64,000 bases of DNA from Paraescarpia echinospica (taxonomy: Eukaryota > Annelida > Polychaeta > Sabellida > Siboglinidae), in NCBI GenBank assembly GCA_020002185.1, contig CM034533.1, positions 42,846,880 through 42,910,879 of the forward strand, in the 5' to 3' direction. Below the pieces are notes generated by a model, which did not search any database, was not told where the DNA came from, and saw only the letters and a list, made by a program, of their open reading frames with translations. Position 1 is the first letter of the stretch, and each line of letters begins with the position of its first letter. A program made the position numbers and the translations under genes. Of this stretch, positions 13,750 to 30,839 are shown piece after piece.

Positions 13750-14078
13750 AGTAGATAGTAAGACCTGTACGATCTCAAAAGCCTACATATAAAAAAGAAT
13801 TTAATGACCACTAAACGATTCGAGCACATAGCTGAGTCAGCAATAATGCGAGACAAATCCTATGTATAAAAAAAGATCAAAGGCTTTGTGTTTGACACTA
13901 ATGAGTTTGGGAAACCTACTTATAAAAAACGTGATTGATGAGCGATGTAATTTGATACTAATTGGATGATTGACAGTACACTAGAGAGATGCCACCTAGC
14001 GGTGAGTGCAGAGAGTATTTTAGTCCTAGCGATCAACGCCGTACCTAGAGCGCGCTGACGTAAGCAATAATGCGTTTA
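13750..14078 (+). repeat. Polinton left terminal inverted repeat
   Basis: 329 bp starting AGTAGATAGTAAGACC and matching the reverse complement of 31039-31367 with about three mismatches. It contains three CCTA-N2-TATAAAAAA elements spaced about 80 bp, a CACCGCTAGG motif on the complementary strand, and GACGTAAGCAATAATGCG at its inner end. Polinton TIRs serve as integrase-recognised ends and presumed protein-primed replication origins. Confidence 0.97.
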
Positions 14079-14079
14079 A

Positions 14080-14262
14080 TAATAAAGTATATAAGTTTAG
14101 TTTCGTACTTTATAACCATGCTAAAGTATAAAAGTTTAGTTTCGTACTTTATAACCACGCTAAAGTGAAGTGGACCACCTATAACTGGGGTAGGAGTTGT
14201 GCTGACGTAAGCAATACGCTGGGGTAGGAGTTGTGCTGACGTAAGCAATACGCTAACCATTG
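14080..14262. repeat. Subterminal tandem repeats
   Basis: Two near-identical units of about 50 bp (AAGTTTAGTTTCGTACTTTA core) lie at 14080-14165. They are followed by two copies of GGGGTAGGAGTTGTGCTGAC plus GTAAGCAATACGCT at 14188-14255. The GACGTAAGCAATA string is shared with the inner end of the TIR. Likely regulatory or terminal-repeat debris. Confidence 0.85.
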
Positions 14263-14291
14263 TGTATTAAAACCATTGCATAAACGTTGAG

Positions 14292-14393
14292 ATGTCCCCG
14301 TATGTGATGTTGACAGCAAGAGGAGCGACGACGACTGCTGCAGCGATAAGGGCTGCTGCCCTACTGGTCTTTGACCCCTGGATGACAGCATAG
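14292..14393 (+). CDS. Possible 33-aa hydrophobic ORF
   Basis: A plus-strand ATG-to-TAG frame rich in Ala, Leu and Thr (TTTAAAIRAAALLVF). It sits in otherwise non-coding left-end sequence. It is too short to assign and has no clear promoter beyond nearby AT-rich repeats. It could equally be chance. Confidence 0.2.
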   Translation: MSPYVMLTARGATTTAAAIRAAALLVFDPWMTA

Positions 14394-14553
14394 CTGGCTA
14401 ACGGCGTTGTTCTGGTGGACGGATTAAAACGAAAGCAATGCGTTTAAATACGTCTAGTCGTGGGATTATCAAATGCATAAATACACTAACATTCAGTAGG
14501 GTGTTTATGCATTGAAAATAGACGCGTGAAAACGTGAGTAGTGACTGGAATAT

Positions 14554-15570
14554 TTATTGTGTGTAATATTGCAGCGTTCGCCCGCGACCGACGGGTTGGC
14601 GCCTGTCGGTCGCCGGCGGGGAGCCGATCTCCGGCGGAGGACCGAAGCCTTCCCGCCGATAGAGTTCGGGAGGCGTTATCGTCCTCCATAAGCCGTTTGG
14701 TAGCCTGACGAGAAAGACTCGCGCTAGATCGGGAACAATCTCATCATCATCATCGTCACTGTAGTAAGCTGCTGCTGTGACATTGAGCGACGGCGTAACA
14801 GGTGCTGGCGAAGGCGCACGGACGGACGGCGCGACCTCACATGTTGTTCGTGTCGACTTTGTCGTCGACGCGTCGGGGAGCACAATCGGCCTACGCGGGG
14901 TATATGTGTCCCTTGTAGGCAGTTGGATCGGTCTATGAAATAGACAAAGGATGAATAAAATGAGTGAGATAGTAAATTGAAATAAAATACTGTCTTGGTA
15001 AAATACATTGTTTAAATAAAATGTACTTATAAATAAAATGCATGCATGCATGTTTAAACGGTAAAATGCGTACTAGTATGCATTAAATAATACAACATGC
15101 ATTTAAACGATAAAACAATTTAAATAAAACAACAATAAAAACGTGCATTTAAATAAAATGCATGCATGTTAAAAATACATGTTTAAATAACAATAAAAAC
15201 GTGCATTTAAATTAAATGCATGCATGCATGTTTAAACGGTAAAACTAGTGAAAACATGCATTACAACAATAAAAACGTGCATACTAGTAAAAACATTTAA
15301 ATAATACAACAATAAAAACGTGCATTTAAATAAAATGCATGCATGCATGCATGTTATAGTAAGCACTGTTTAAATACGTTAAAACAATAAAAACGTGCAT
15401 TTAAATAAAATGTATGCACTGTCTTACCGTGGTTTCGTTGTGGACATGTTGTTAGAGCGATGGGTGGAGACGACGTGTTTGCGTGGTTGTAAAAGCGTGT
15501 ATGAAATGTGCGCGTCGTGAAAACAGCGGTGGCGGCGGCGCATGACACTACGACTGATTTTGATTGACAT
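14554..15570 (-). CDS. Two-exon Polinton gene, acidic/proline-rich protein of unknown function
   Basis: Exon 1 (15570-15428) starts at an ATG and ends at a strong donor (ACG followed by GTAAGAC). Exon 2 (14932-14554) follows the acceptor TATTTCATAG. The exons sum to 522 nt, 174 codons, with the split codon keeping the frame. That is good evidence that the 495-nt intron is real. The N-terminus is Arg/His-rich. The middle is Thr/Pro-rich, and an acidic run (YYSDDDDDEIVPDLARVF) precedes a conserved-looking LPNGLWRTITPPELY segment. I do not recognise the family. A TATA-like GTATATAACG lies about 65 bp upstream on the minus strand. Confidence 0.6.
14945..15425. repeat. AT-rich repeat array inside the intron
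   Basis: Repeated ATGCATGCATG, TTTAAATAAAATGCATGC and AACAATAAAAACGTGCATTT units fill nearly the whole predicted intron. The region is strikingly AT-rich against the GC-rich exons. No coding capacity is evident. Confidence 0.85.
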
Positions 15571-15572
15571 GT

Positions 15573-16340
15573 GAACGGAGAACAAAGGGATTTTACAAAC
15601 GTTAAACGAAACGTTAAAAGTACGAAATTAAACGTTATATACGATCACTGGGGGGTCAGGAAACACGAGATGCGTATATATTAGAGAAATTCGCGGTAAA
15701 AGACACATTTGACGATGAATGCACTGACGTGAACGTTAGCTTTTTTTCCTAAAACAAATTCCTCGGAGAGTAAACGGAATGCGTTAAGCGCACATGTGTG
15801 ACATCTGTTGCGCGTGACTTAACGAGTTGGAATGTGAACGGAGAACAATGGATTTTACAAACGATAAATGAAACGTTAAAAGCGCGAAATAAAACGTTGT
15901 ATAAGATCGCTGGGGGATCAGGACACACGAGATGCATAGATATTAGAGAAATTCGCGGTAAAAGTCACATTTGACAATGTATGCACTGACGTGAACGCTA
16001 ACTTTTTCCGAAAACAAAATGCCTGGGTTGGATGAAGTATGCACGACGATAATTGAAAAAGATAAGGATATGAGTGTGAAGTGCGCATGCGCGTTATAGT
16101 GTAGACAATGACATTTCAAAAACAATAAACGAAACGTTAAAAGCACGAAACTAAACGTTGTATAGATTCTCTGTGGAGTCAGGACACGCGAGGTGCATCG
16201 ATATTAGAGAAAATCGATGTAAGGAGAGATTTAACGGCGAATGTACCGACGTGACCGGATACTTTTTTTCGAAAACAAAATGTCTGAAATGTACGAGGCA
16301 CGCACACTGATAATTGAGTAAGATGACGTATTAGGGTGAA
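15573..16340. promoter_or_regulatory. Three tandem ~260-bp repeats between divergent genes
   Basis: The core GAAACGTTAAAAG...ACG recurs near 15607, 15866 and 16128 (spacing about 260 bp). Each unit also shares CACGAG/GCGAG, TATTAGAGAAA and ACTGACGTGAACG blocks. The array separates the minus-strand two-exon gene from the plus-strand OB-fold locus. Each unit has a TATA-like element on the minus strand. This suggests a triplicated bidirectional control region. Confidence 0.7.
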
Positions 16341-16367
16341 GTGCGCATGCGTGTTATTTGGAAAAGG

Positions 16368-16374
16368 TATAAAA
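16368..16374 (+). promoter_or_regulatory. TATA box of the OB-fold/alternative-exon locus
   Basis: GGTATAAAACGGGT lies about 150 bp upstream of the first in-frame ATG (16519) and about 60 bp upstream of a pyrimidine-rich acceptor-like site at 16434. It is the best TATAAAA match in the interval. Confidence 0.65.
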
Positions 16375-16518
16375 CGGGTGAGAAAATGTTATATTGTATG
16401 ACGGCGAACTTCTAACCGTGTATTCTTTCTACAGAGCAGCAAGCAGCAGACGTTCTTCCGCAACAAGGCGGATGAAAGTCAACAAACAAAAAAGTCGAAG
16501 GCGCCGCGTAAGCAGTCG

Positions 16519-17220
16519 ATGAAGGCGGCGGCCAGCAGCAGTCAACCTTCGGCACTGATTGCAGCCTTGTCAACGGGGGTGTCTCCACCCGTTAAGCGCC
16601 CCGTTACGCTGATCGCGGCCCCGTTGACGGTCGGCCGAAAACGGAGCGCCGAAGAGGCGCACTTGGAACAGCCCGACGAGACGGCCGCGCAGCCCCCGGT
16701 CCTGTCGCGGAGCGGTTCTATGGAGCGTGAATCGGCGGCGTCGACACGCGCCACAGCGGTGAGTCTGAGACATCTGAAGTGCGCCGTCAACGGCGTATAT
16801 AAAATCCTGTCACCCGTTACGATCGAGGCCGTCTCGTACAAAGGCGAACCCGGCACCACCTATTTGGGATGTTCCCGTTGTCGCCGGAAATTACAGACAA
16901 ACAAAGACGGGGCCCTGATATGTCGAACGCACGGTGAAGTGTTTGTACCGAAATATTTCTTCGCGTTGCGTGTGATGGTGAAGGACGGCGAGGAGGAAAA
17001 AGATGAGCTTTGGCTTACGTTGTTCGATAGCCAAATGTCTAATCTCGTCGAGTTCACGGCCGAGTACCTGACGGAATTGAACGAGGAGGATCTCCGCGAT
17101 ACCGTGCTCGAGTTAACCTGTACTAAAGTGGAGATTAGTGTGCGGAAGACGAGTTGGAACGGGGACCCCTCGTATACAGTCCGCACACTAAAAAGATACG
17201 TCGACGACGACGATGACTAA
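16519..17220 (+). CDS. OB-fold/zinc-ribbon ssDNA-binding-like protein (RPA C-terminal type)
   Basis: 233 aa. Residues 1-80 are low complexity and contain PVKRPV and GRKRSAEE, likely nuclear-localisation signals. Residues 81-225 look like the RPA1 C-terminal OB fold with an inserted zinc ribbon (Cys118, Cys121, Cys135, His138), then PKYFFALRVMVKD, ELWLTLFDSQ and an acidic tail. This suggests a viral single-stranded DNA-binding protein supporting PolB. The reading frame is open upstream of the ATG to a phase-0 acceptor at 16434/16435, so an undetected 5' exon is possible. A short upstream ORF (16472-16522) overlaps the ATG as ATGA. A strong splice donor follows codon 80 (see 16759). Confidence 0.7.
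   Translation: MKAAASSSQPSALIAALSTGVSPPVKRPVTLIAAPLTVGRKRSAEEAHLEQPDETAAQPPVLSRSGSMERESAASTRATAVSLRHLKCAVNGVYKILSPVTIEAVSYKGEPGTTYLGCSRCRRKLQTNKDGALICRTHGEVFVPKYFFALRVMVKDGEEEKDELWLTLFDSQMSNLVEFTAEYLTELNEEDLRDTVLELTCTKVEISVRKTSWNGDPSYTVRTLKRYVDDDDD
16759..16764 (+). other. Predicted 5' splice donor (GTGAGT) after codon 80
   Basis: ACAGCG followed by GTGAGTCT is a near-perfect donor at a codon boundary (240 nt after the ATG, phase 0). Four downstream acceptors at 17246, 17464, 17640 and 17742 all open phase-0 frames. The splice choice would swap the OB fold for other C-termini. Confidence 0.65.
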
Positions 17221-17246
17221 TGTTGTTGTTGTTGTGTTGTTTGTAG

Positions 17247-17441
17247 GAAGAGGAGGAAAATTGGCCGCTACTGGTAGATTTATTGAAGCACGCCAACGAA
17301 CGACAACGAATGAGAGATCGTCAGGGACTGGAACTAAGCAAGCAGAGCTTTGAACTATTAGCCGAGTCGGCCGAACAATATATAAGAGCGTTTTGGTTGG
17401 CCTATGAAGCAAGCCTATTTCGTAGTAGTTTGATGTACTAA
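17247..17441 (+). CDS. Alternative exon E1 (64 aa), helical, no ATG at its start
   Basis: The acceptor (TTGTGTTGTTTGTAG), 26 nt after the OB-fold stop, opens 64 codons in phase 0. They begin EEEENWPLLVDLLKHANERQ and end in SSLMY before TAA. It looks alpha-helical and acidic/basic mixed. It has no start codon at its beginning, so it only makes sense as a 3' exon. Joining it to the 16758 donor would give a protein of about 144 aa. A weaker internal phase-0 donor (CTG followed by GTAGAT) would also allow chained splicing. Function unknown. Confidence 0.55.
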   Translation, partial: EEEENWPLLVDLLKHANERQRMRDRQGLELSKQSFELLAESAEQYIRAFWLAYEASLFRSSLMY

Positions 17442-17464
17442 CAGTTGTGCTTTATATGCTTTAG

Positions 17465-17620
17465 GAAGTGCGCTGCGTACTCCAAAAAATGCTTGCAAAC
17501 AACGAAAGGATTCGCGCTCAGTACGACGAGGTTGCAACGTTCGTAAGAACGTTGTTGGAACGGGGTGAGCCGGCGGGGTCAGTAAAGATGGAGGAGGAGA
17601 AGAAGGAGAATGAAGACTAA
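17465..17620 (+). CDS. Alternative exon E2 (51 aa), helical, no ATG at its start
   Basis: It follows the E1 stop by 23 nt, after acceptor TTTATATGCTTTAG. It is open in phase 0 for 51 codons: EVRCVLQKMLANNERIRAQY near the start, an EEEKKENED tail, then TAA. NNERIRA here resembles ANERQRMR in E1, hinting at an exon duplication. Possible internal phase-0 donors are TTC|GTAAGA and TCA|GTAAAG, so chained splicing cannot be excluded. Confidence 0.55.
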   Translation, partial: EVRCVLQKMLANNERIRAQYDEVATFVRTLLERGEPAGSVKMEEEKKENED

Positions 17621-17640
17621 TCATAATAATGTGTTTGTAG

Positions 17641-17724
17641 GACGCTCTGATGCAACACACCAGACGTGAGTGTATGAGCGACTTCCTACACGCGTTGCTG
17701 ACGGTGATATCACGTAAAGAGTAG
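17641..17724 (+). CDS. Alternative exon E3 (27 aa), ATG-less
   Basis: Acceptor ATGTGTTTGTAG lies 20 nt after the E2 stop. Twenty-seven phase-0 codons follow (DALMQHTRREC then MSDFLHALLTVISRKE) before TAG. Very short, so support comes mainly from its identical layout to E1, E2 and E4. Confidence 0.45.
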   Translation, partial: DALMQHTRRECMSDFLHALLTVISRKE

Positions 17725-17742
17725 AACTGCTTTGTGCTGTAG

Positions 17743-18396
17743 GGTAGTGGCGGAGGAGTACGTGACGTTCACGTATTGGAGGCGATAATCGAGGAGGCGC
17801 TGGGCTCGCCCCGAACGCGCCCCCCTCCACCGACGTATAACGACAGCCTGGCGACGAAGGGACCGTACTGGAGCGTATCGGAGGAGCTGGGGACGTGTCA
17901 ACGGCTACTCGTCGTGCCGAGCCGGAGTCAGTTGATCGTACGTTACGAACGACTGGCTATGGATCTCATCGCCGAGACTATCGGCGAAATGGTTCTGGAG
18001 AAGGCGCGAGATCATTGCGGGCTATGCGAACCAAATGAAGGCTGCCCCTACGTTCACATGGCCGGCTATCGCGCGGGACGGCCGAATCGCGTCTACATGC
18101 AACGTTTCGTTAAGCCGGGCTGTATTGTGACGCGGTATTTCAACGAGGTCATGGAAACGTTCCTACGTCGATCGCTCATAACGTGTTTTACGAGACTAGT
18201 GCATATACTAAGCGAGACTACGGTGTCGATTTCTTCCGGTGATCAGCAGCCGCAAACGGGCCGTGCAGGAGAATTGTATTTGGTCCAGTTTGTGTCGAAC
18301 TGGTTGTTGGGGACGAATTGGCGAGATTACATGAATCGCGTGCAACTCGAGTCGGCCGTGCACACGTACGTGCAACGTCGGAGCGGACTGGAATGA
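17743..18396 (+). CDS. Alternative exon E4 (217 aa) with a Cys/His cluster
   Basis: Acceptor TTTGTGCTGTAG, 18 nt after the E3 stop, opens 217 phase-0 codons starting GSGGGVRDVHVLEAIIEEAL. The first in-frame TTG is not a credible start, so an upstream exon is needed. A proline run with PPPPTYN follows, then a cluster with Cys92, Cys95, Cys101 and His105 (CGLCEPNEGCPYVH) that could bind zinc. A helical C-terminal region ends in VQRRSGLE. Not a family I recognise. An AATAAA lies 80 bp past the stop. Joined to the 80-aa leader it would be about 297 aa. Confidence 0.65.
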   Translation, partial: GSGGGVRDVHVLEAIIEEALGSPRTRPPPPTYNDSLATKGPYWSVSEELGTCQRLLVVPSRSQLIVRYERLAMDLIAETIGEMVLEKARDHCGLCEPNEGCPYVHMAGYRAGRPNRVYMQRFVKPGCIVTRYFNEVMETFLRRSLITCFTRLVHILSETTVSISSGDQQPQTGRAGELYLVQFVSNWLLGTNWRDYMNRVQLESAVHTYVQRRSGLE

Positions 18397-18475
18397 ACGA
18401 ACACTAGTAGAATAGAGAACATTTGCTTGCTATCGAAACGAAGGCTTCACGTGTTTGAATGTTGTAAGAGTACCG

Positions 18476-18481
18476 AATAAA
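18476..18481 (+). terminator. AATAAA poly(A) signal for the E1-E4 locus
   Basis: CCGAATAAAACG lies 80 bp downstream of the E4 stop and before the repeat block that precedes polB. It could serve all alternative transcripts. Confidence 0.6.
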
Positions 18482-18509
18482 ACGTTGAAAATGTTCTTTC
18501 CGTTTCCGA

Positions 18510-19035
18510 GTTACCTAGTTAGAAAAATTACCGCTAGTTAGAAAAAATCACCACCGCTAGGACCACCACACAGTTAGAACATTCTACCGCTAGGGTTAGA
18601 AACACTAGTTAGAAAAACCACCACCGCTAGGATCAGTTAGAACATTCCACCGCTAGGGTTAGAAACACTAGTTAGAAAAACCACCACCACCACACAGTTA
18701 GAACATTCCACTGCTAAGGTTAAACAAATCTTCCCGCTAGGGTGTACACACCACCACCGCTAGGATCAGTTAGAACATTCCACCGCTAGGGTTAGAAACA
18801 CTAGTTAGAAAAACCACCACCACCACACAGTTAGAACATTCCACCGCTAGGGTTAGAAAAATCTTCCCGCTAGGGTGTACACACCACCACCGCTAGGATC
18901 AGTTAGAACATTCCACCGCTAGGGTTAGAAACACTAGTTAGAAAAACCACCACACAGTTAGAACATTCCACCGCTAGGGTTAGAAAAATCTTCCCGCTAG
19001 GGTGTACTTACCACCACCACCACCACCACCACCGT
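18510..19035. repeat. CACCGCTAGG-rich repeat array upstream of polB
   Basis: About 110-120-bp higher-order units are built from ACCGCTAGGGTTAGAAA, CACTAGTTAGAAAAACCACC and CAGTTAGAACATTCC blocks, ending in a (CCA)n stretch. ACCGCTAG occurs more than ten times. The same motif occurs in both TIRs and next to the right TIR (30940-30955). It may be a replication or transcription control array. Confidence 0.85.
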
Positions 19036-19047
19036 CACCGTCGCCGA

Positions 19048-19055
19048 TATAAATA
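19048..19055 (+). promoter_or_regulatory. TATA box of polB
   Basis: GATATAAATAGCG lies 30-37 bp upstream of the polB ATG, implying an extremely short 5' leader. Confidence 0.75.
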
Positions 19056-19084
19056 GCGACGCTCGAAAAATATCATTAGAGAGA

Positions 19085-22000
19085 ATGCCACCACCACCTA
19101 CTAGATGGCAATGTCCGAAATGTGGGCGCTATTTCGCGACGCAGTCGACATTCGAACGACACGTAAAGAGTTCGAAAATATGCGGCGACGAAGCGCTATG
19201 CGTAAAAGGTCGAGAGTGTCCAAAATGTGGCAAGCTATACACCACGCGTTACGTTATGCTACGACATCTGAGGCTGCAGTGTGGCCGTTCGTCGCCACCT
19301 AGTAGTGAATCAGTGGAGGAAGAGGCCGCCGCTAGGGCGCCGCCGTCGCCCGACGATCTACAGCGTGTCGTAGACGAGCACCGGCGTAGCATAGAGACGT
19401 CGGTGGCGCGCGGCGTCATACAGTCGCGTTACAACTATCGTATGACCGCCTGTACGAGTACGCGCGTACTCGAACCGCGTCTGAGGGAAATGTTTCGCGC
19501 GCAAAAGAACGCGTTTAAAATTAACGTTAGTTATGGTTTTGTATTACGCCACAAGGTGTCGGGTCGGTACCGATATTTTCATTCTTCGTGTAACTGTTGC
19601 GGACGCCTCCTCGAAACACCCGCCCTAGTTACCGATAGCCGTTCATTCGATCGATTCCTCGACGCCGTGCGCAATACCGACGTACTGCAGTACGCCATCG
19701 CGCAGCGTCCCGACTCGGGATGGATCTTCGAGCTCGTAACTAACGCCACCTACTTCGTGAACGTCATCATCAATCATCCTATCGGCTGCGTTGGCGTGAC
19801 GACGCTTCCCGCCTACGTGCGCCTCAACAGGTCCATCGTGATGTTGACGAACGATGTTCGAGGCGCGCCCTACGACGACCATCTGTGTCTCTTCCGATGC
19901 ATCGCCCTTCACCTGCAAGGTCACCGACGAGGCCAAAGTATCCGTCATACGAACCGTTTAACGAAAGACGCTAAACGTCTGCACGCGCGGTATCGTCGCC
20001 ACACGGCGACGACCTCAAACGGTGGCGGCGTGCGCCTGAACGATCGCGTGGAGACGGTTTTCGGCATCAACGTCGTCGTCTATCGTCGACTGACGAACGA
20101 CGTCGCCGAACTAGTCCGTCGATCGCTCGAAACGCACCCCACGACGCTGAACGTCAACCTGTACGAGTCGCACTTCTCGTACATAAGCGATCGGCGCGCG
20201 TACACGAAAACGTACAAGTGCGGGAAATGCGGCAGCGTCCTCTGGCGGAGCGCGCGCAATTTACGACGTCACGAAGCGACGTGCGAAGGCGGCGTTCGTC
20301 ACGTGTTCCCCGGCGGCGTCTACCGACCGACGGCGTCCGTATTCGAGCGGCTCGACGACGAAGGCATCGACGTCGGCGACGACGACGACCTGCGCTACTA
20401 CCCGTACCGCGCGACGTTCGATTTCGAGTGCTATTTCGCCGATAACGATCTGCCGACGAATAGCGACAAATGCCGCTGGATCGCGCGACACGAACTGCTC
20501 AGCGTGAGCGTCGCGTCGAACGTGCCCGGTCACGAAGCGGCGCGCTGTTACGTCACGACCGGCGATTCGTCGGAACTCGCGCGTCGACTCATCGACGACC
20601 AGGAAGCGGTGAGCGCGGCGGCGTGCGCGATTCTACGTCCCCGCTACGACGCGACCTTCGAGGCGCTCGACGCGCTCGACGCCGACTGGCGGCGACGATG
20701 CAACGACGACGACGACGACGCCGCCGACGCGTCACCGTACGCCACTCTCGCCGACCGGCTGTGGACGTACCTTCGACAAATGCCCGTATTGGGATTCAGT
20801 TCGGGTAAGTACGACTTCAACGTCGTCAAAAAGTATTTGACCCCCCTGCTCATAACCGACGACGCGCAGCACACGTCGTCGGCGTTTACCATTAAACGTC
20901 AGAACAATTACATGTGCCTGTCGACGACGACGTTGAAGTTCCTGGACATAACGAATTACCTCGCGCCCGGCGTTAGCTACGATCGCTTTCTGAAAGCGTA
21001 CGGTTGCTCGGCAACGAAGGGCTACTTCCCGTACGAGCACATCGACGCGTTGTCGCGTCTGGACGAAACCGCCCTGCCGTCGCGCGAAGCTTTCTGCAGC
21101 CAGCTGAAACGCGAGGGAATCTCCGCGGAGGCGTACGAGATTTGCGCGACGGCGTGGCGCGACGAGGGCATGACGTCGATGCGCGATTTTCTTGTGTGGT
21201 ATAACAATCGTGACGTGGCGCCGTTTCTCGAGGCCGTCGATCGCCAGTTCGCCTTCTATCGGCGCCGACGTATCGACATGTTCAAGGACGCCATCAGCGT
21301 ACCGGGGTTGACGTTGTTGTACCTGTTCAACGACCTGCCGAAGTCGATCCATTTCTCGCTCTTCAACGAGCCGAACAAAGATCTGCACCGTCTGCTGCAG
21401 GCGCAGATCGTCGGCGGCCCGTCGATCATCTTCTCGCGCCACCACGAGGCCGACGTAACGTCGATTCGTGGCGACGGCGGCGCGCCGTGCCGATCGATAG
21501 TAGGCTTCGACGCAAACGGCCTCTATCTATGGGCGATAATGCAGGAGATGCCGACGGGCTGGTACACGCGCCGACGCGCTGAGAACGCCTTTCGAGCGGA
21601 ACGCGTGCACCGCTACGGTCGTATGGCCGTGGAGTGGTTGACGCGCGTGGAGGCGGAAACCGGCGCGCGTATACGTCACCAGTTGAACGGACGCGAGAAG
21701 CGCATCGGAAAGCACCGAGTCGACGGCTGGTGCGCCGCCACGCGAACGGCGTATCAATTTCACGGCTGCTATTTTCACGGCTGCCAGACGTGTCAGGCGC
21801 ACGTGACGACGAACGCCGTCAACGGTCAACCGATGACGACGCTGTACGCCGCGACGATCGCCGTGACCGCCTACCTGCGCCGTTTCGTCGACGAAGTCGT
21901 CGAAATGTGGGAGTGCCAGTGGCACGCCGTGCAACCGCCGGCGGTGCCGACGCCGCCCGACGCGTCACGATGGCAACCGTCGCCGACCGTGCGCGACGGC

Positions 22001-23200
22001 TCTCTGTTCGGCCTCGTGCAGTGCGATATCGCCGTACCGGAAGCGCTGCGCGACAAGTTCGCCGAGGTGCAGCCGGTATTCAAGAACGTCGATATCGTGC
22101 GCGACGATCTCAGCCCGTTCATGCGCGACTACGCCGAGTCGCACGATCTCCTCACGCGACCTCAACGCACGCTCGTCGGTAGCTACTTCGGCGCGGCGAT
22201 CTTGCTCGCGACGCCGCTCCTACGCTGGTATCTGGCGCACGGGCTCGTCGTCGAGCGCGTCTACCAGATCGTCGAATACGCGCCGATAGCGTGCTTTCGC
22301 CGCTTCGGCGACGCGGTTTCGACGGCGCGCCGCGAGGGCGATATCGATCCCGACAAATCGATCATCGCCGATACATTTAAACTTCTCGGGAACACTTCCT
22401 ACGGGAAAACGATTACGCGCGTCGATCGGCACCGGGAAATCAAGTACGCGACGCAGGTCGGCGCGTCGATGCTCGTCAACAATCGGCGCTTCCGGCAACT
22501 GGACGTCGTCGTCGACGACGCGCTGTACGAGGTGGCGCTGAATAAGCGTAAAATCGTCTACGGCCTGCCGATACAGTACGCAAAATTGAGAATGCTGGAA
22601 TTTTATTACGATTTCGTCGACGCCTACATTCCCCGTCCGCTCTTCCAGTACTGCGCTATGGACACCGACTCGGCGTACATAGCCCTAGCCGGACGTGACG
22701 TCGACGCGCTCGTACCGGAAGAACGTCGCGAACACTACTTCCGGAATCGTTCGCTCTGGTTTCCGGCCGAATGCTGCGACGCGCACGTGGACGCCTACGT
22801 ACGACGGCGCGTCGCCGGACTAGCGTGGGACGGCGGCGCGGCGGCCTGCTGCGCGCGCCGACGCCTGTTCGAACGTCGAACGCCATGTCTGTTCAAAGAA
22901 GAGTGTTGCGGCGACGGAATCGTGGCGCTGTGTAGCAAAACCTACTACTGCTTCGGCGGCGTCGCCGGTCCGAAGTACAGCACGAAGGGACTGAGCAAGC
23001 GACAGAACGCCGACATCGACGAGCACACCTTCCTCGCCGTACTGCGCGACCGTCGCAACGGCGTCGGCTGGAACCGCGTTTTCCAAGTGAAAGACTCGTC
23101 CGTGTTGACGTACGTTCAAGAGCGCGCGGCGTTGAGCTACTTCTACGCTAAACGCCGCGTGCTCGACGACGGCGTCACTACGGCGCCGATACTCGTCTAA
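19085..23200 (+). CDS. POLB: Protein-primed family B DNA polymerase (Polinton)
   Basis: 1371 aa, uninterrupted. Two N-terminal zinc fingers (Cys10/Cys13/His26 and Cys45/Cys48/His61) and a third Cys/His finger near 379-400 precede the catalytic part. The 3'-5' exonuclease begins at FDFECYF (Asp446, Glu448), with YDFNVVKKY further on. Polymerase motif A is DANGLYLW (Asp809). Motif B is KLLGNTSYG (Lys1099 to Gly1107). Motif C is MDTDSAY (Asp1193, Asp1195). This is the enzyme that copies the linear element from protein-primed ends. The start fits a TATA box 30 bp upstream. Several long antisense and shifted frames are codon-bias shadows. All catalytic motifs are present. Confidence 0.97.
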   Translation: MPPPPTRWQCPKCGRYFATQSTFERHVKSSKICGDEALCVKGRECPKCGKLYTTRYVMLRHLRLQCGRSSPPSSESVEEEAAARAPPSPDDLQRVVDEHRRSIETSVARGVIQSRYNYRMTACTSTRVLEPRLREMFRAQKNAFKINVSYGFVLRHKVSGRYRYFHSSCNCCGRLLETPALVTDSRSFDRFLDAVRNTDVLQYAIAQRPDSGWIFELVTNATYFVNVIINHPIGCVGVTTLPAYVRLNRSIVMLTNDVRGAPYDDHLCLFRCIALHLQGHRRGQSIRHTNRLTKDAKRLHARYRRHTATTSNGGGVRLNDRVETVFGINVVVYRRLTNDVAELVRRSLETHPTTLNVNLYESHFSYISDRRAYTKTYKCGKCGSVLWRSARNLRRHEATCEGGVRHVFPGGVYRPTASVFERLDDEGIDVGDDDDLRYYPYRATFDFECYFADNDLPTNSDKCRWIARHELLSVSVASNVPGHEAARCYVTTGDSSELARRLIDDQEAVSAAACAILRPRYDATFEALDALDADWRRRCNDDDDDAADASPYATLADRLWTYLRQMPVLGFSSGKYDFNVVKKYLTPLLITDDAQHTSSAFTIKRQNNYMCLSTTTLKFLDITNYLAPGVSYDRFLKAYGCSATKGYFPYEHIDALSRLDETALPSREAFCSQLKREGISAEAYEICATAWRDEGMTSMRDFLVWYNNRDVAPFLEAVDRQFAFYRRRRIDMFKDAISVPGLTLLYLFNDLPKSIHFSLFNEPNKDLHRLLQAQIVGGPSIIFSRHHEADVTSIRGDGGAPCRSIVGFDANGLYLWAIMQEMPTGWYTRRRAENAFRAERVHRYGRMAVEWLTRVEAETGARIRHQLNGREKRIGKHRVDGWCAATRTAYQFHGCYFHGCQTCQAHVTTNAVNGQPMTTLYAATIAVTAYLRRFVDEVVEMWECQWHAVQPPAVPTPPDASRWQPSPTVRDGSLFGLVQCDIAVPEALRDKFAEVQPVFKNVDIVRDDLSPFMRDYAESHDLLTRPQRTLVGSYFGAAILLATPLLRWYLAHGLVVERVYQIVEYAPIACFRRFGDAVSTARREGDIDPDKSIIADTFKLLGNTSYGKTITRVDRHREIKYATQVGASMLVNNRRFRQLDVVVDDALYEVALNKRKIVYGLPIQYAKLRMLEFYYDFVDAYIPRPLFQYCAMDTDSAYIALAGRDVDALVPEERREHYFRNRSLWFPAECCDAHVDAYVRRRVAGLAWDGGAAACCARRRLFERRTPCLFKEECCGDGIVALCSKTYYCFGGVAGPKYSTKGLSKRQNADIDEHTFLAVLRDRRNGVGWNRVFQVKDSSVLTYVQERAALSYFYAKRRVLDDGVTTAPILV

Positions 23201-23316
23201 CTCGTAAACTCGTCTAACTCGTAAACACTCGTCTAACTCGTCTACTACTAACCTAACACCCACCACCCCCCTAGGGGTAGTTTCTGTATGTATGTATGTA
23301 TGTATGTGTGGGTAAT

Positions 23317-23322
23317 AATAAA
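23317..23322 (+). terminator. AATAAA poly(A) signal of polB
   Basis: GTAATAATAAACACC lies 117 bp after the polB stop, just before the convergent protease gene. The convergent gene has its own AATAAA on the other strand at 23354-23359, inside its last codons. Confidence 0.65.
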
Positions 23323-23340
23323 CACCAACAATTGTATACA

Positions 23341-23835
23341 TCATTTGTTCGTTTTTATTTCTTCTACTACAAGCGGTGGATAATGAGGTTTTAATAAATC
23401 GTGTACGAGACAGTCATTGTTCACCCTATCGGTGCCGAATAGGCTCTGGAACGTCGTCAACGGCATCCCGCTACATCGGAGGAGAAGGTAGGCGACGCAA
23501 TATTGTCCGCACACGTTAGAGATGACGCTCTGCAGGCGCTTGTCGTTGTACGTCCACGCGTCGCCGCAGTGGCGGCGCAGGAAGGCGCGGAAGTCGGCGT
23601 GCAGCGGCGGCAGACCGTACGAATCGAAGTACTCGCCTCGTCGGTCGGCGCCGACGTAGACGGCCACCCAGTGCTGTCCCGGTTCGCCGCCGTCGTCGGT
23701 GTTGCACACGAAGGCCGTCGGGTAGGTGGTGGCGGCGGCGGCGGTAAGTAGCGCGTCTTTAGGCACGACGCCGACAACGATACGTTTAGCGTACGTATCG
23801 AGTTCCAGACGACGCATCAGTTGAAACGTATCCAT
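23341..23835 (-). CDS. PRO: Adenain-like cysteine protease
   Basis: 164 aa from the ATG at 23835, two bases after the capsid stop. The longer upstream frame only overlaps the capsid gene. The motifs match adenovirus-type (C5) maturation protease: His55 in GQHWVAVY, Asp71 in EYFDSYG, Gln102 in LQSV and Cys109 in VCGQYC. The Gln-to-Cys spacing is seven residues, as in adenain, and the CGxxC context is kept. It would cleave capsid and core precursors. The last gene of the minus-strand block; its poly(A) signal is embedded in the final codons. Confidence 0.95.
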   Translation of the reverse strand: MDTFQLMRRLELDTYAKRIVVGVVPKDALLTAAAATTYPTAFVCNTDDGGEPGQHWVAVYVGADRRGEYFDSYGLPPLHADFRAFLRRHCGDAWTYNDKRLQSVISNVCGQYCVAYLLLRCSGMPLTTFQSLFGTDRVNNDCLVHDLLKPHYPPLVVEEIKTNK

Positions 23836-23837
23836 AG

Positions 23838-25145
23838 TTACCAGTCGTAAATGACGTTCCGGTTCCGGTCGATTTCCATCACCGTCTCGAATTCCGCGTA
23901 CACGACGACGTTCACCGGACGCGCTAGCGGCGTCTCGAAATGCATATCGACGCCCACGCACCCCTGACGCACGACGTTGAAATGATCGCCGTCGCAACAG
24001 TCGGGGGTCAGGTCGAAACCGAAGATGCTGTAGCCGGCGCCGAAGTCCGTGCGCGATACGTCGTTCCCCTCGTCCTCGAACGCCTTTCCGGTCGCCTCGA
24101 AGAGATTCATGTAGCTGCGCACGTACCGGTTGTGCGGGAAGTCCGGCTGCAGCGGCTTGCTCGGCACCTGACATCCGTCGACGACGAGCGACAGGAAGTT
24201 TATGTCGTTGTGACGCGCGTCGAACGGATTTCTAGTGTAGTCGCCGTTGTAGGCGTCGTTGTCGATCATCATCAGGAAGACGCGTTTCGGAATCGCGCCC
24301 ATGTACAGGTTCTCGTGCGTGTGCGATAGCGCGCCCGCCGTTATCGAGAACGATTTGCAGTCGACGCGACGCATCGGAAACTTAGCCGTTCCCAACGCCC
24401 ACGCTTTGATATGTCCCATCTGGACGGCCGGGTTCAACTTCACTTTTCGCACGTGCAGTCGAATCGCCTGCAGCACGACGCGCCACCCCGGTACGGCTTG
24501 CGCGCCCATCAGCGAGAAGGCGTCCTTCGAACGCACTATGCGCACTTTCGTGTCGACGCCGTTCGGTAGGTGTTTGTTTAGCATAAACGCGTCGACGTGC
24601 AGGCGTCCCATCATGTCCACCTCGTGGCTATCGGCCGTCGCGACGCGTCGCGACTCGAAGCCGAGGTTGGCGTTGCCGAGCGTGTCCATCCGTCCGGCGG
24701 TGTCTTTGTACCATAACGACGCCGTGAGATACGAACGTTTCGCGTCGCTACCGTAACTTTGCAACGTCTCGAGGTAGGCCCGGTACGCGTACGTATTGGT
24801 CGACGGCGTCACGAGGGTGTTGTTCAGCGACACGTCGATTTGACTGATCAACGAATGCAGGAAATTGTTGCCCGGCGCCACCGCGGCCGCGGCCGCGGCC
24901 GCCAGATCGGTACCGTCCCCCCGCGTCACTTTGAAGCGCACGTACAGTTGAATGCTCGCCAGGTCCGTATAGTCTTCGCCCGAACCCGGCACGAGGAACT
25001 CAATAGGGCCGCCGGCGTCGAGAGTCGTCAGCGGCTGGTAGACGGTCCAATGACTACTCTCGATGCTCGTCTGCGTCACCGGTCCGCTGAACAGCTCCAT
25101 TTCGGCCTTCACGCCCTCGCACGTCGAGCCGTTCACGAACGCCAT
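23838..25145 (-). CDS. MCP: Major capsid protein, double jelly-roll
   Basis: 435 aa, uninterrupted. The N-terminal half has the Polinton capsid hallmark GGPIEFLVPGSGEDYTDL followed by LYVRFKVTRGDG, then FLHSLISQIDVSLNNTLV. The C-terminal half contains NPFDARHNDINFLSLVVDG and a C-terminal strand-rich stretch (RPVNVVVYAEFETVMEID). An Ala run lies near residue 85. It would form the trimeric capsomers of an icosahedral shell. It is followed two bases later by the protease. Confidence 0.95.
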   Translation of the reverse strand: MAFVNGSTCEGVKAEMELFSGPVTQTSIESSHWTVYQPLTTLDAGGPIEFLVPGSGEDYTDLASIQLYVRFKVTRGDGTDLAAAAAAAVAPGNNFLHSLISQIDVSLNNTLVTPSTNTYAYRAYLETLQSYGSDAKRSYLTASLWYKDTAGRMDTLGNANLGFESRRVATADSHEVDMMGRLHVDAFMLNKHLPNGVDTKVRIVRSKDAFSLMGAQAVPGWRVVLQAIRLHVRKVKLNPAVQMGHIKAWALGTAKFPMRRVDCKSFSITAGALSHTHENLYMGAIPKRVFLMMIDNDAYNGDYTRNPFDARHNDINFLSLVVDGCQVPSKPLQPDFPHNRYVRSYMNLFEATGKAFEDEGNDVSRTDFGAGYSIFGFDLTPDCCDGDHFNVVRQGCVGVDMHFETPLARPVNVVVYAEFETVMEIDRNRNVIYDW

Positions 25146-25206
25146 CGTTGTCGTCCGTTCGACGTCTTCCGCCTACTGACGACCGTCGCCGCTAGCCGCG
25201 CTCTCT

Positions 25207-25371
25207 TTATGCCGCCGCCGCCGCCGCAGCGGTTTTTCTTCCGTCGAGTTGATTGAATATCGTATGCAGGATGACCGTCGGATCTCCTCCGCGCGGCATC
25301 ATAAATACTATGAAGCGCACTCGAAGGTACGGCGGCTGGTAGAACTGACTGTTCTCGAGTGCGCGCTCCAT
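25207..25371 (-). CDS. Possible 54-aa ORF between capsid and pX-like genes
   Basis: An ATG-to-TAA frame fits the gap between the pX-like gene (ends 25380) and the capsid start (25145). It reads NSQFYQPPYLRVRFIVFMM then a basic/Ala-rich end. A segment of about 60 bp downstream of it (25152-25216) is a near-copy of the pX-like 3' end (25395-25465). The gap may therefore have arisen by local duplication. Real coding status is uncertain. Confidence 0.4.
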   Translation of the reverse strand: MERALENSQFYQPPYLRVRFIVFMMPRGGDPTVILHTIFNQLDGRKTAAAAAAA

Positions 25372-25379
25372 CGTCGTCG

Positions 25380-25820
25380 TTACTCGTCGAATATGTCCGT
25401 TCGACGCGCTCTTTTCCGACTACTGACGGTCGTCGCCGCTAAGCGCGCTCTCTTTACGCCGCGAGGACGGCGCTGCTGCTGCGTTTGTTTCTTTTTCTTC
25501 TTCTTCTTTGGTGGCGCCGCCGCCTGCGGATTCAATAGGCCGTCGAGAAGATCGGCGCCGGCCTCCTTCGCGCGCCTTTTTAGCGACTGTTTCAGATTGC
25601 CGCCGGCGACGACGTCGCGCGCCACGTGCATGCCGGTGTTGAGCGCCCGTTTTCCCAACGCCATCGCGCCTCTCTTGATAAGCGGCATGGCGCTTCGAAA
25701 CAGACTCCCGAAGAGATTACCTAGACCGTGACCTCGTTGACCCCGAGCGCCGACGAAGACCGGCAGCTGTCCGCCGACCTAACGAACGTAGTAGTCCACG
25801 TACGGGTTCTTCGACGACAT
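25380..25820 (-). pseudogene. pX-like basic core/minor capsid protein, interrupted by a stop
   Basis: The frame begins at the ATG at 25820, one base before the penton-gene stop. It continues to 25380 (147 codons including the terminal stop), with one in-frame TAG at 25779-25781 (codon 14). Downstream of the break the protein is typical of small basic Polinton/adintovirus core proteins: a Gly-rich LGNLFGSLFR segment, KRGAMALGKRALNTG, a KKKKKKKQTQQQRR run and a final KRARR. It is probably DNA-condensing or capsid-associated. Re-initiation at the Met at 25688 could still give a 102-aa product. A sequencing error is possible. Confidence 0.75.
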
Positions 25821-25821
25821 G

Positions 25822-26700
25822 TTAAAACAATTTCGATTTACAACGTCTGAAGTGAAGCGTCGTCACCACCTTCCCCTGCTCGAATGGTATCGGTTGGCCG
25901 TGATCGTCTCTTATATCGACTTCGACCTCGTCGAATTGATTCCGCATCAGCTTAACGTATTGCACGCGAACGAACGATTCCGAAACGACGTCACCGTTCT
26001 CACCGCGGACGGCGATGTTTCGAAGGAGCGGAGCGAACACGTCACCGACGACGCGCGGTTCCACGAGATCCGTGTACACGTACAGACTCTCGATGCCCGC
26101 CGACATGGTCACCGTATCGCGACCTTCGTACTCGAACGTGTACGCGGCGGGCGACGTGCTGATGACGGGCCTCGTCGCCGGCGCGGGACCGTACGCGGAC
26201 GAACTCATGATCGTGTTGCTATGGAAACCTAGCACGTGCCTCAGACGGCTCGAATGAGGTATGATAAATTCGACACCCGCCGACATACGTAGCGTAAAGC
26301 GGTTAGAGACGGCGCAGTATTCTAGCACGGCCTTGACCTTCCTGGTGTGTAATTTCTCTAGCGCCTCGTTGATCCTGTTGCACAACGTATAAACGTTGTT
26401 GTAGAAACCGTGAGGAATCGTCGTCTGACAATATATCAGCACGGTCGTGCCTTCTTCGTCTAACTGCGTGTAAACGCCCCGTTCGCCCGCCGCGCAAGTC
26501 AGATAGAAGTAGGCGTCCTTCTTTCTCACGTTGTACCACGTGTGCGGATACTGTACCGACACGGCGCCGCATTCCCACTCCCCCGACAGGTCGAAACGTC
26601 GCGGCAACGTCGTGACGTAGTGCGTCAACGTATTTTCGGGGTGACGTTTCATAGACGCGTTGCTCGGCAGCGTCAGGTAAAAGTCAGACGAGAGCGCCAT
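25822..26700 (-). CDS. Penton-like minor capsid protein
   Basis: 292 aa from the ATG at 26700; the longer frame to 26733 uses GTG. The N-terminus (DFYLTLPSNASMKRHPENT, then LSGEWECGAVSVQYPHTWYN) is the characteristic opening of Polinton penton/minor-capsid proteins. It is expected to be a single jelly roll at the vertices. It overlaps the preceding membrane-protein gene by 17 bp and ends 1 bp before the pX-like ATG. No breaks. Confidence 0.9.
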   Translation of the reverse strand: MALSSDFYLTLPSNASMKRHPENTLTHYVTTLPRRFDLSGEWECGAVSVQYPHTWYNVRKKDAYFYLTCAAGERGVYTQLDEEGTTVLIYCQTTIPHGFYNNVYTLCNRINEALEKLHTRKVKAVLEYCAVSNRFTLRMSAGVEFIIPHSSRLRHVLGFHSNTIMSSSAYGPAPATRPVISTSPAAYTFEYEGRDTVTMSAGIESLYVYTDLVEPRVVGDVFAPLLRNIAVRGENGDVVSESFVRVQYVKLMRNQFDEVEVDIRDDHGQPIPFEQGKVVTTLHFRRCKSKLF

Positions 26701-27046
26701 CGCGTTGACGACGTTCGTCGCCTCCGCCGACACTCATAGACGGACTCGGGAGCAGGTAACCGAGACAGCTGCTCAACAGCGCCGTCCACAGGTTGGAGTC
26801 ACCTTGACCTTTCGTCAGATTGTATATACTAACGGCGATGACGAAGTACAGGACGACGACCTGACAGAGGAACACGATTTCGGCCTTAGGGCATTCGTTG
26901 CCGCAGATTCGCCATGGAACGGGTTCGGCGGCGGTTGTTGTTGTAGCGTCGATGGAGTCCGCGTTGCGCTCGTCGTCGACGACGGACGATTCGTCGGCGT
27001 TCGTTCGACGCTCGCCACTCGAGGTAGTTTCGTCGTCGTCGCACAT
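26684..27046 (-). CDS. Small two-span membrane protein conserved in Polintons
   Basis: 120 aa. An acidic Ser/Thr-rich N-terminal 45 residues leads to a first hydrophobic segment (FLCQVVVLYFVIAVSIYNL) and a second (LWTALLSSCLGYLLPSP). A hydrophilic tail overlaps the penton start. The motif NLxxGxxxxxLWxxLLSSxLGYLLPSP recurs in Polinton gene sets as I know them. Probable membrane or virion-membrane role, exact function unknown. A TATA box lies about 40 bp upstream. Confidence 0.75.
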   Translation of the reverse strand: MCDDDETTSSGERRTNADESSVVDDERNADSIDATTTTAAEPVPWRICGNECPKAEIVFLCQVVVLYFVIAVSIYNLTKGQGDSNLWTALLSSCLGYLLPSPSMSVGGGDERRQRDGALV

Positions 27047-27083
27047 CGTCGCGCCACTGCGCGCTGTCGAAGCAACAGGGACC

Positions 27084-27089
27084 TTTATA
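27084..27089 (-). promoter_or_regulatory. TATA box of the membrane-protein/penton/capsid block
   Basis: The minus strand reads CCGTATAAAGGTCC, 38-43 bp upstream of the ATG at 27046. A second TATAAAA is at about 27107-27113. They lie in the gap after the integrase gene. Confidence 0.6.
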
Positions 27090-27169
27090 CGGTAAGAACG
27101 AAGATCCGTTTTATAGTCCCGCCTCGTGCAGTCGCCAGCAGCCGGTGTGACGCGTCCAACGATTCATCA

Positions 27170-28306
27170 TCATAGGTCCACGAGCGACTCGGCGTCGATC
27201 CAGCTGTTGAATGAGGCCGGATATCCGCTCCATTTTACGAGCGCCTCCGAACCGCCGCCACGACGCCGACGACGCCGAAGAACCGCCTCCACGCGATATA
27301 GTTTGTCTTTCGGAACGACTACGCGTTGTAGTTCCTGTTCGTAGAAGGCGCCCTCTATCGGCGTCTCGGCGTCGTCCTTGAGGCGATAAACGGGCGGTTC
27401 GGGCGGGTGCACCTCTACGACGGTGAACAGCTCCTCGCTCCAGTTAGCCATGTATCCTTTTTTGAAATGACCCCTCGTCTTGCTGGTACGTACGCGATCT
27501 CCCACGCGTAGTTTCGGTTTTCGTCGTCGTTCTACGTCGTCGCCACCCCCGTACAGTCGTTGCCATACGGCCTCCTGATTCGTCGCGCCGACACTCGCCT
27601 GCGTCCTACCGATGCTTCGGTGGTAGGCGTTGTTGTACGATCGCACGAAATCCGGTAACGCCTCTACGTAGCGCAGCGTTTCGTGTTTCGTAAAATAGCG
27701 CCACATACGCGTCTTCAAAGTTCGATTAAACCGTTCCACGACGCTCGCTTTGGTCTCCTCGTTATGCGTCACGAAATGATGAACGCCGCGACTCTTTAGC
27801 AACGTTTGCAGGGGTCGGTTCAAAAACTCGCTCCCCTTATCGGTCTGCAGCGTGTGCGGCGTCTCGTCGTCGTCGTTCAGCAGGCGCTCGAAGGCCGCGA
27901 CGAGCGACGCTCCGGACTTATTCTTCAACGGAACGCACCACGCCCGCTTCGAAAACACATCGATCACCGTCAATAGGAATGTTATACCGTCGTTGTGCGT
28001 TTTCAGTCTAGTCAAGTCGACCAGATCGGCTTGCCACTGCTGGTTTCGACCGCCCACGATGACGCGACGTCGTTTGAAATTACGTCTAACCGGTTTGTGT
28101 AGGGTATAGGCGTCCTGCGACGCTAGCCACCTCTCGACGGCCGGACGTCGGAGCTTCGACGACCGGTGCAACGCGTCGACGCCTCCGTAACTCCCCACCC
28201 GTTTCGGATCGAAGTACGCTTTATTCAGCTCGTCGTCGTCGTCCTCGTCAACGTTTCGTTGCTGTCGAGGCTTTCGTTTTGGACGACGACTCCACCCGGA
28301 CACCAT
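27170..28306 (-). CDS. INT: Retroviral-type integrase with C-terminal chromodomain
   Basis: 378 aa, uninterrupted. The rve core carries Asp94 (QADLVDL), Asp156 (LQTDKGSEF) and Glu191 (VVERFNRTLK), with about 34 residues between the last two. An SH3-like region follows (RVGDRVRTSKTRGHFKKGY). The last 45 residues form a chromodomain (LYRVEAVLRRR, LVKWSGYPASFNSWI). It inserts the element with 6-bp target duplications. The chromodomain could steer insertion to methylated chromatin. The N-terminus is basic. Confidence 0.96.
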   Translation of the reverse strand: MVSGWSRRPKRKPRQQRNVDEDDDDELNKAYFDPKRVGSYGGVDALHRSSKLRRPAVERWLASQDAYTLHKPVRRNFKRRRVIVGGRNQQWQADLVDLTRLKTHNDGITFLLTVIDVFSKRAWCVPLKNKSGASLVAAFERLLNDDDETPHTLQTDKGSEFLNRPLQTLLKSRGVHHFVTHNEETKASVVERFNRTLKTRMWRYFTKHETLRYVEALPDFVRSYNNAYHRSIGRTQASVGATNQEAVWQRLYGGGDDVERRRKPKLRVGDRVRTSKTRGHFKKGYMANWSEELFTVVEVHPPEPPVYRLKDDAETPIEGAFYEQELQRVVVPKDKLYRVEAVLRRRRRRGGGSEALVKWSGYPASFNSWIDAESLVDL

Positions 28307-28425
28307 GACGACGACGACGACGATGATGATACGATGATACAGAACACGATAAGCGCGATGATGAAACCGACGACGACGACGATGATGATCGCGCGTCGTG
28401 ACGTCATCACGACAACGTATCCCAC
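28225..28425 (-). CDS. Possible 66-aa single-span membrane ORF overlapping INT
   Basis: The ATG at 28425 is followed by a hydrophobic stretch (AIIIVVVVGFIIALIVFCII) and a Ser run. The frame then overlaps the integrase start in another frame. It fills the only gap between two genes. The hydrophobic run comes from GTC/ATC trinucleotide repeats, so chance is a serious alternative. Confidence 0.3.
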   Translation of the reverse strand: MGYVVVMTSRRAIIIVVVVGFIIALIVFCIIVSSSSSSSSWCPGGVVVQNESLDSNETLTRTTTTS

Positions 28426-28869: not shown

Positions 28870-28907
<38 letters not shown>

Positions 28908-29608: not shown

Positions 29609-29646
29609 AGCGACTAATAAACGTACGCCCCGTCGTCCCTCTCTTC

Positions 29647-30302: not shown

Positions 30303-30330
30303 TTTTCACGACTGAACGACGAACACTTTT

Positions 30331-30783: not shown

Positions 30784-30818
30784 CGTACCGACTACCGATC
30801 ACCCGCTACCGCCACCGC

Positions 30819-30826: not shown

Positions 30827-30839
30827 CACCGACACTAAT

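What the first reader, a model, noticed from the sequence alone, without database searches (positions are those of the whole stretch)
16519..18396. One donor, four phase-matched acceptors: predicted alternative C-terminal exon cassette in a Polinton
Seen: a GTGAGT donor falls exactly after codon 80 of the OB-fold gene. Downstream, four segments of 65, 52, 28 and 218 codons (including stops) each start right after a pyrimidine-rich AG. Each is open only in phase 0, has no ATG at its start, and ends 18-26 nt before the next acceptor. Inference: alternative splicing attaches a common 80-aa, NLS-bearing N-terminus to an OB-fold/zinc domain or to any of four other C-termini, as in compact DNA-virus transcription units. 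I know of no such arrangement described for Polintons.
Basis: partly seen in the sequence, partly recalled or inferred. Interest (0 to 1): 0.87.

Follow-up and report, generated by a model that had tools for sequence, protein, structure and literature searches.

The report
Polinton gene with alternative spliced endings
A virus-like jumping gene appears to make one DNA-binding protein and up to four other proteins from a single gene by choosing among splice sites, a layout that recurs in distant relatives of the element although such elements have been described as lacking introns; no RNA has been examined yet.

Summary
In detail: one GTGAGT donor (16759) and four acceptors (17247, 17465, 17641, 17743), each opening a phase-0 frame of 65, 52, 28 and 218 codons that closes 18-26 nt before the next acceptor. 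0 of 1000 shuffles tile as well. In 51 distinct copies from the same genome the donor GT is kept in 51, acceptor AGs in 203 of 204, and frames are intact in 46-50. Polinton families whose OB protein is only 23-27% identical repeat the layout: a GTRAGY donor at the start of the OB fold and phase-0 acceptors opening frames that lack a start codon. A contig from another source (tubeworm endosymbiont MAG) repeats the OB stop, acceptor and S4. The stops before S1, S2 and S3 lie in CTAAY, branch-point-like motifs. Coding evidence is strong for S2 and S4, weaker for S1 and S3. Best reading: alternative 3' splice-site choice in a single-strand-binding gene. No RNA evidence was available.

The parts
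13750..31367 (.). Polinton element
   Evidence: TIRs 13750-14078 and 31039-31367, 329 nt, 99%; TCTATT on both sides at 13744-13749 and 31368-31373, once in the empty inverted copy of the site
16368..16374 (+). TATA-box-like sequence
   Evidence: sequence; aligned in copies with variants
   Evidence: nonsynonymous variants depleted, p 0.0017
16759..16764 (+). shared splice donor GTGAGT, phase 0
   Evidence: GT in 51 of 51 copies, whole nonamer in 49; GTRAGY in 16 of 17 further loci read for it
16759..17220 (+). RPA-C-like OB/zinc domain, encoded in the retained 'intron'
   Evidence: PF08646 E 9.9e-9; yeast RPA70 6i52_C E 5.8e-5
17217..17221 (+). CTAAT around the OB stop, branch-point-like, before S1
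   Evidence: CTAAY within 45 nt upstream of S1 in 50 of 51 copies; stop preceded by C in 49 of 51
17247..17441 (+). S1, 65 codons with stop
   Evidence: AG in 51 of 51, frame intact in 47 of 51; open in 8 of 11 relatives
17438..17442 (+). CTAAC around the S1 stop, branch-point-like, before S2
   Evidence: 51 of 51; kept behind an earlier stop in L070, L074, L075, L077, L078
17465..17620 (+). S2, 52 codons with stop
   Evidence: AG in 51 of 51, intact in 50 of 51; dN/dS 0.13 against L074, p 5e-7
17617..17621 (+). CTAAT around the S2 stop, branch-point-like, before S3
   Evidence: 50 of 51
17641..17724 (+). S3, 28 codons with stop
   Evidence: AG in 50 of 51, intact in 50 of 51; dN/dS 0.44 against L074, p 0.07
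17743..18396 (+). S4, 218 codons with stop; PPTY and C-x2-C-x5-C-x3-H
   Evidence: AG in 51 of 51, intact in 46 of 51; dN/dS 0.18 against L070, p 1e-17; PPTY 50 of 51; Cys/His cluster 50 of 51
18476..18481 (+). AATAAA poly(A) signal shared by all readings
   Evidence: only AATAAA/ATTAAA in 16350-19090
19085..23200 (+). DNA polymerase B gene, next gene on the same strand
   Evidence: 56-64% identical to 16 Polinton-type PolB proteins

Best explanation
The gene between the TATA box at 16368 and the poly(A) signal at 18476 is one transcription unit read in up to five ways. Unspliced, the message encodes the common N-terminal exon fused to an RPA-C-like OB/zinc domain, most likely the element's single-stranded-DNA-binding replication protein. 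When the host spliceosome uses the single donor at 16759, it joins the same basic N-terminal exon to one of four acceptors and so replaces the OB domain by S1, S2, S3 or S4. The stops before S1, S2 and S3 lie inside CTAAY sequences that look like branch points, which would explain the regular stop-to-acceptor spacing. Shown from sequence: sites, phases, conservation, selection and recurrence in distant families. Inferred: that splicing happens, that the choices exclude one another, and that the spliced products are nuclear accessory or regulatory proteins.
For: Tiling unmatched in 1000 shuffles. In 51 distinct copies: donor GT 51, acceptor AGs 203 of 204, frames intact in 46-50. Purifying selection in frame 0 within copies for the common exon, OB and S4 and between families for S2 and S4. 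S4 is constrained before its first ATG: first 40 codons of the window against L070, L074 and L076 p 0.016, 0.0017, 0.02, and L070 against L074 p 0.0003; the PPTY motif lies there. Same layout in L068, L069, L072, L071, L073 with OB proteins 23-38% identical; in L068/L069 the last frame is constrained over about its first 75 codons, nearly all before its first ATG (dN/dS 0.20, p 7.5e-7). The base before the donor is G in 15 of 16 further loci while its codon varies. CTAAY before S1, S2, S3 in 50, 51, 50 of 51, and kept when the S1 stop lies elsewhere. L085, from another source, repeats OB stop in CTAAC, 23 nt, TTGTAG, phase-0 S4 homologue whose first Met is codon 112.
Against: No RNA data. Selection on S1 and S3 is not firmly shown (S1 against L074 dN/dS 0.80, p 0.35; S3 p 0.07), and within copies S2 is not significant and frame +1 scores as low (p 0.34 and 0.18). 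Against L075, L077, L080 and L083 the first 40 codons of S4 show no significant depletion. Many in-frame length changes are trinucleotide repeats. No CTAAY precedes S4 in the 51 copies. L070 and L076 have broken S1 and S3, L075 lacks the S2 AG, L084 lacks S1-S3. The second frame in L068/L069 has dN/dS 0.73, p 0.035. The donor position differs by about 8-10 codons between family groups. The best-scoring acceptor of the region, 16435, is not explained.
Confidence: 0.8

Rival explanations
1. Only some acceptors matter: S4 (and probably S2) are genuine spliced products, while S1 and S3 are minor, lineage-specific or decaying exons.
For: Selection is clear for S2 and S4 but weak for S1 and S3; L070 and L076 have broken S1 and S3 with open S2 and S4 starts; L073 and L085 have an S4-like frame without S1-S3.
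Against: S1 and S3 frames are intact in 47 and 50 of 51 copies, and their acceptors and CTAAY motifs are kept; S1 keeps EQYIRAFWLAYEA-like and S3 RREC-like cores in diverged relatives.
Confidence: 0.14
2. No splicing: the segments are translated from a polycistronic RNA by reinitiation or internal entry at inner start codons.
For: S2 and S3 have ATGs near their starts (codons 9 and 4), and S4 has one at codon 38-40 in 46 of 51 copies.
Against: Frames are closed by a stop right at most acceptors and constrained before the first ATG in S4 and in the third frame of L068/L069; the first Met of the L085 homologue is codon 112; donor and acceptor consensus recur in unlike families.
Confidence: 0.03
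3. The acceptors are joined not to 16758 but to some other upstream leader exon that supplies a start codon.
For: The best-scoring acceptor, 16435, lies upstream of the common exon and hints at a leader.
Against: The donor at 16759 is the top-scoring donor of the region, in phase with all acceptors, and a donor at the start of the OB fold recurs in 16 of 17 further loci.
Confidence: 0.02
4. Chance: open stretches behind chance AGs.
For: S1-S3 are short and AG is common (133 AGs in the region).
Against: 0 of 1000 shuffles, conservation in 51 copies, recurrence in distant families and in L085.
Confidence: 0.01

Closest known systems
Polinton/Maverick transposons (vertebrate Mavericks, PMC8097293, passages seen; Kapitonov and Jurka 2006 only as cited there)
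   Same: TIRs, 6-bp target duplication, PolB, integrase with chromodomain
   Different: [quoted passage not shown] here one gene appears to be spliced in several ways
Alternatively spliced units of nuclear DNA viruses such as adenovirus early regions, polyomaviruses and papillomaviruses (recalled, no call)
   Same: One common exon and donor, several acceptors, shared poly(A) site, unspliced form also coding
   Different: No homology shown; stop codons lie in branch-point-like motifs; junctions not yet seen in RNA
Replication factor A large subunit, C-terminal OB domain (PF08646)
   Same: OB domain with Cys cluster, above the curated cut-off in the window and in L068
   Different: Lies inside a retained intron-like stretch behind an element-specific N-terminus

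Membership tests
[quoted passage not shown]
Polinton/Maverick | Type-B (protein-primed) DNA polymerase | tested here: met
   56-64% identical to 16 relatives; PF03175 is precomputed for most of the 120 listed of 1076 hits; the Pfam scan of the window protein itself did not list it
Polinton/Maverick | Retrovirus-like integrase, chromodomain | tested here: met
   PF00665 and PF00385 above cut-off
Polinton/Maverick | Capsid proteins, adenain-like protease, FtsK/HerA ATPase | tested here: inconclusive
   no Pfam hit above cut-off for these frames; labels are recalled resemblance
RPA-C-like OB fold (PF08646) | Profile score above curated cut-off | tested here: met
   35.6 bits against 28.5
Alternative 3' splice-site transcription unit | Shared donor and several phase-matched acceptors under conservation | tested here: met
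Alternative 3' splice-site transcription unit | Spliced RNAs with these junctions | not testable with these tools
   no RNA reads available
Adintovirus | Place in the PolB/capsid phylogeny of that group | not tested
   no tree was built

The most novel reading that the evidence does not exclude
Invertebrate Polintons share an ancient spliced early gene: the single-strand-binding gene is a splice-regulated switch whose retained intron makes the replication protein and whose removal makes lineage-specific nuclear accessory proteins, with stop codons doubling as branch points. Polintons would then be nuclear, virus-like elements with adenovirus-style alternative splicing rather than intronless transposons, and many of their unassigned frames without a start codon would be alternative exons of this gene.
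Probability: 0.4. Interest if true: 0.85.

Novelty: new variant of a known kind. Interest (0 to 1): 0.75.

Why it matters
If true, the gene content of Polintons has been under-read, because coding exons without start codons escape ORF callers. It would tie these elements to the host spliceosome and to nuclear transcription, add a regulated early unit like those of nuclear DNA viruses, and offer an immediate RNA test in any host with active copies. The overlap of stop codon and branch point is a very tight packing of two signals that can be tested directly.

Tried and rejected
Homology searches that gave nothing: the OB protein against 5.8 billion proteins (388 candidates, none at E <= 1e-3); PolB and a capsid-like frame in viral contigs; S4 in viral contigs; the OB alignment had no usable stretch. 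S4 against the protein collection gave only P0121 and P0122 among 8000 scored candidates; both begin at a called start and say nothing about splicing. S4 has no Pfam hit and no convincing PDB hit. S4 and the second frame of L068 are not detectably homologous. An AlphaFold model of S4 from three sequences has mean pLDDT 48.4 and pTM 0.45, mostly helical; too poor for a fold search, which was not run.

I rejected multiple-of-three length changes as main evidence, since many are CAG or GAG repeat changes. Further donors inside S2 (17565) and S3 (17666): the first is not kept by the translations of most copies, the second is changed in L074. My first use of 'before the first ATG' for the first 72 codons of S4 held only for the window copy; one search showed that the first Met is codon 38-40 in 46 of 51 copies, so the claim was retested on the first 40 codons and my confidence lowered slightly. 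A first pattern for the Cys/His cluster was miscounted and corrected.

Literature: passages seen in PMC8097293, PMC3671162, PMC12220804, PMC8363768, PMC11071296; search listings only. No listing or passage that I saw describes spliced Polinton genes; the library lacks most subscription papers.

Full report
Observation. Asking how much of 17221-18450 can be tiled by phase-0 frames of at least 25 codons that start at acceptor-like AGs gives 1089 of 1230 nt in the real sequence, against a mean of 98 and a maximum of 522 in 1000 dinucleotide shuffles; of 391 other N-free stretches of that length in the window (both strands, step 300, some overlapping the cassette) the best was 1029 nt, by one single long frame.

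The element. The window holds a 17.6-kb Polinton with 329-nt terminal inverted repeats and TCTATT target duplications; its flanks recur inverted, 99% alike, at 59761-64000 without the element and with one TCTATT. By profile or homology it has PolB, an integrase with chromodomain, the RPA-C-like OB gene and a NADAR-domain protein. Capsid, protease and ATPase labels are recalled resemblance.

Copies. The genome (1.08 Gb, 3111 contigs) gave 51 match rows for the cassette from 40 scored of 851 candidates, and 150 scored of 2008 candidates for S4, at 94% identity or more and beginning at residue 1 or 2 of S4. Of 58 loci held, 50 were kept and aligned with the window: 51 distinct rows. The donor nonamer is unchanged in 49 of 51 and GT is kept in 51; acceptor AGs are kept in 51, 51, 50 and 51 of 51. 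Frames are intact in N 47, OB 46, S1 47, S2 50, S3 50 and S4 46 of 51.

Start. The 50 other rows have an in-frame start codon 18 codons upstream of 16519; only the window row lacks it. Lengths of 16435-16518 differ by multiples of three in 49 of 51 rows, partly by a CAG repeat. The common exon is therefore probably 98 codons; intact copies exist.

Selection within copies. Counting each variant once, nonsynonymous changes are depleted in frame 0 for N (p 0.001), OB (0.01), S4 codons 1-72 (0.006) and the rest of S4 (4e-12); S1 and S3 are borderline (0.06 each) and S2 is not significant (0.34; frame +1 gives 0.18). The pairwise measure gives pN/pS 0.32 (N), 0.36 (OB), 0.43 (S1), 0.62 (S2; frame +1 0.47), 0.39 (S3), 0.17 (S4).

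Selection between families. S2 against L074 dN/dS 0.13 (p 5e-7); S4 against L070 0.18 (p 1e-17); S4 1-107 against L074 0.35 (p 3e-5); S3 against L074 0.44 (p 0.07); S1 against L074 0.80 (p 0.35). With eight relatives each, S1 ranges from 0.17 to 0.80 and S3 from 0.25 to 0.70. The first Met of S4 is codon 38-40 in 46 and 71-73 in 5 of 51 rows. Its first 40 codons are constrained in the window against L070 (p 0.016), L074 (0.0017) and L076 (0.02), and L070 against L074 (0.0003), but not significantly against L075, L077, L080 or L083.

Distant families. A PolB relative and the Pfam OB profile led to other Polintons in the same genome. In L068 and L069 (OB protein 25% identical over the alignment, 27% in a BLASTP match) a first exon of 19 or 16 codons ends at ACG|GTAAGT or GCA|GTAAGT, the OB frame follows, and two further frames open exactly at acceptors in phase 0: 274 and 209 codons in L068, 319 and 206 in L069, with stops. 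The last frame is constrained over about its first 75 codons, nearly all before its first ATG (dN/dS 0.20, p 7.5e-7); the middle one weakly (0.73, p 0.035). L071 (OB 23%) has GTAAGC at the same border and a phase-0 acceptor inside a frame that overlaps the OB end. L073 (38%) has a donor and one S4-like frame. The donor lies at two OB positions about 8-10 codons apart in the two groups. GTRAGY is present in 16 of 17 further loci read for it; L082 lacks it.

Relatives close to the window. Of 11 (L070, L074-L081, L083, L084) all have the donor; S1 opens at its acceptor in 8, S2 (with AG) in 9, S3 in 8, the start of S4 in 10. L070 and L076 have no open S1 or S3, L075 has lost the S2 AG, L084 lacks S1-S3 and the start of S4.

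Another source. The one scan of bacterial and archaeal genomes found L085, in a MAG titled bacterium endosymbiont of Escarpia laminata (45% identity, residues 73-216). It holds the end of an OB gene, its stop in CTAAC, 23 nt ending TTGTAG, then a 271-residue S4 homologue in phase 0 with its first Met at codon 112, PPTY and CGECESNEGCPFVH, an AATAAA and PolB. I infer host DNA in a bacterial bin. The contig does not reach the donor.

Branch points. CTAAY lies 19-29 nt before S1, S2 and S3 in 50, 51 and 50 of 51 rows, against 8.6% of 40-mers in the region. The stop before S1 follows a C in 49 rows, the S1 stop is CTAAC in 51, the S2 stop CTAAT in 50. In L070, L074, L075, L077 and L078 the S1 frame ends just upstream and CTAAC stays, which points to a role of its own. 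No CTAAY precedes S4 in the 51 rows.

Mechanism. One TATA box, one poly(A) signal, one donor: unspliced RNA would give the OB protein, and splicing would swap the OB domain for S1, S2, S3 or S4. S4 has PPTY in 50 of 51 rows and C-x2-C-x5-C-x3-H in 50 of 51; P0122 keeps PPAY. PPxY as a ligand of WW-domain ubiquitin ligases is recalled. GRKRS is in the common exon in 45 of 51 rows. Nuclear regulatory roles are inference.

Known. PMC8097293 says that no introns were observed in intact vertebrate Mavericks, in agreement with Kapitonov and Jurka (passage). Searches pairing Polinton or Maverick with splicing, introns or OB-fold listed no paper that, from title and start of abstract, treats spliced Polinton genes; five papers were read in passages only.

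Verdict. Observation confirmed; interpretation supported and extended beyond this element; RNA evidence is missing.

Noticed in passing
16465-16467: The window copy lacks the upstream start codon that the 50 other aligned copies have, so it may not make the full common exon.
   Followed up: yes
30331-30783 (-): The Polinton carries a NADAR-domain protein (PF08719, E 5e-24), a family tied to ADP-ribose chemistry (recalled); a possible counter-defence gene.
   Followed up: no
10703-13749 and 31368-32566 against 59761-64000: An inverted copy of the insertion site without the element lies 28 kb away: a recent insertion, or two haplotypes in the assembly.
   Followed up: partly
about 30237 (-): The ATPase-like frame of the window copy seems interrupted near its Walker A-like motif (recalled motif).
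   Followed up: no
15585-16268: Three copies of a 161-nt repeat at 261-262-nt spacing (64-89% alike) just upstream of the promoter, perhaps control elements or iterons.
   Followed up: no
18571-19015: Repeats of 55 nt and of 133 nt between S4 and PolB.
   Followed up: no
16435: The best-scoring acceptor of the region lies upstream of the common exon; a leader intron is possible.
   Followed up: partly
L071, reverse strand 616-1065: In another Polinton family the alternative frame overlaps the end of the OB frame in a different phase.
   Followed up: no
L085: A Polinton fragment (OB end, S4 homologue, PolB) sits in a contig filed under a bacterial endosymbiont MAG of a tubeworm, evidently eukaryotic DNA.
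   Followed up: partly
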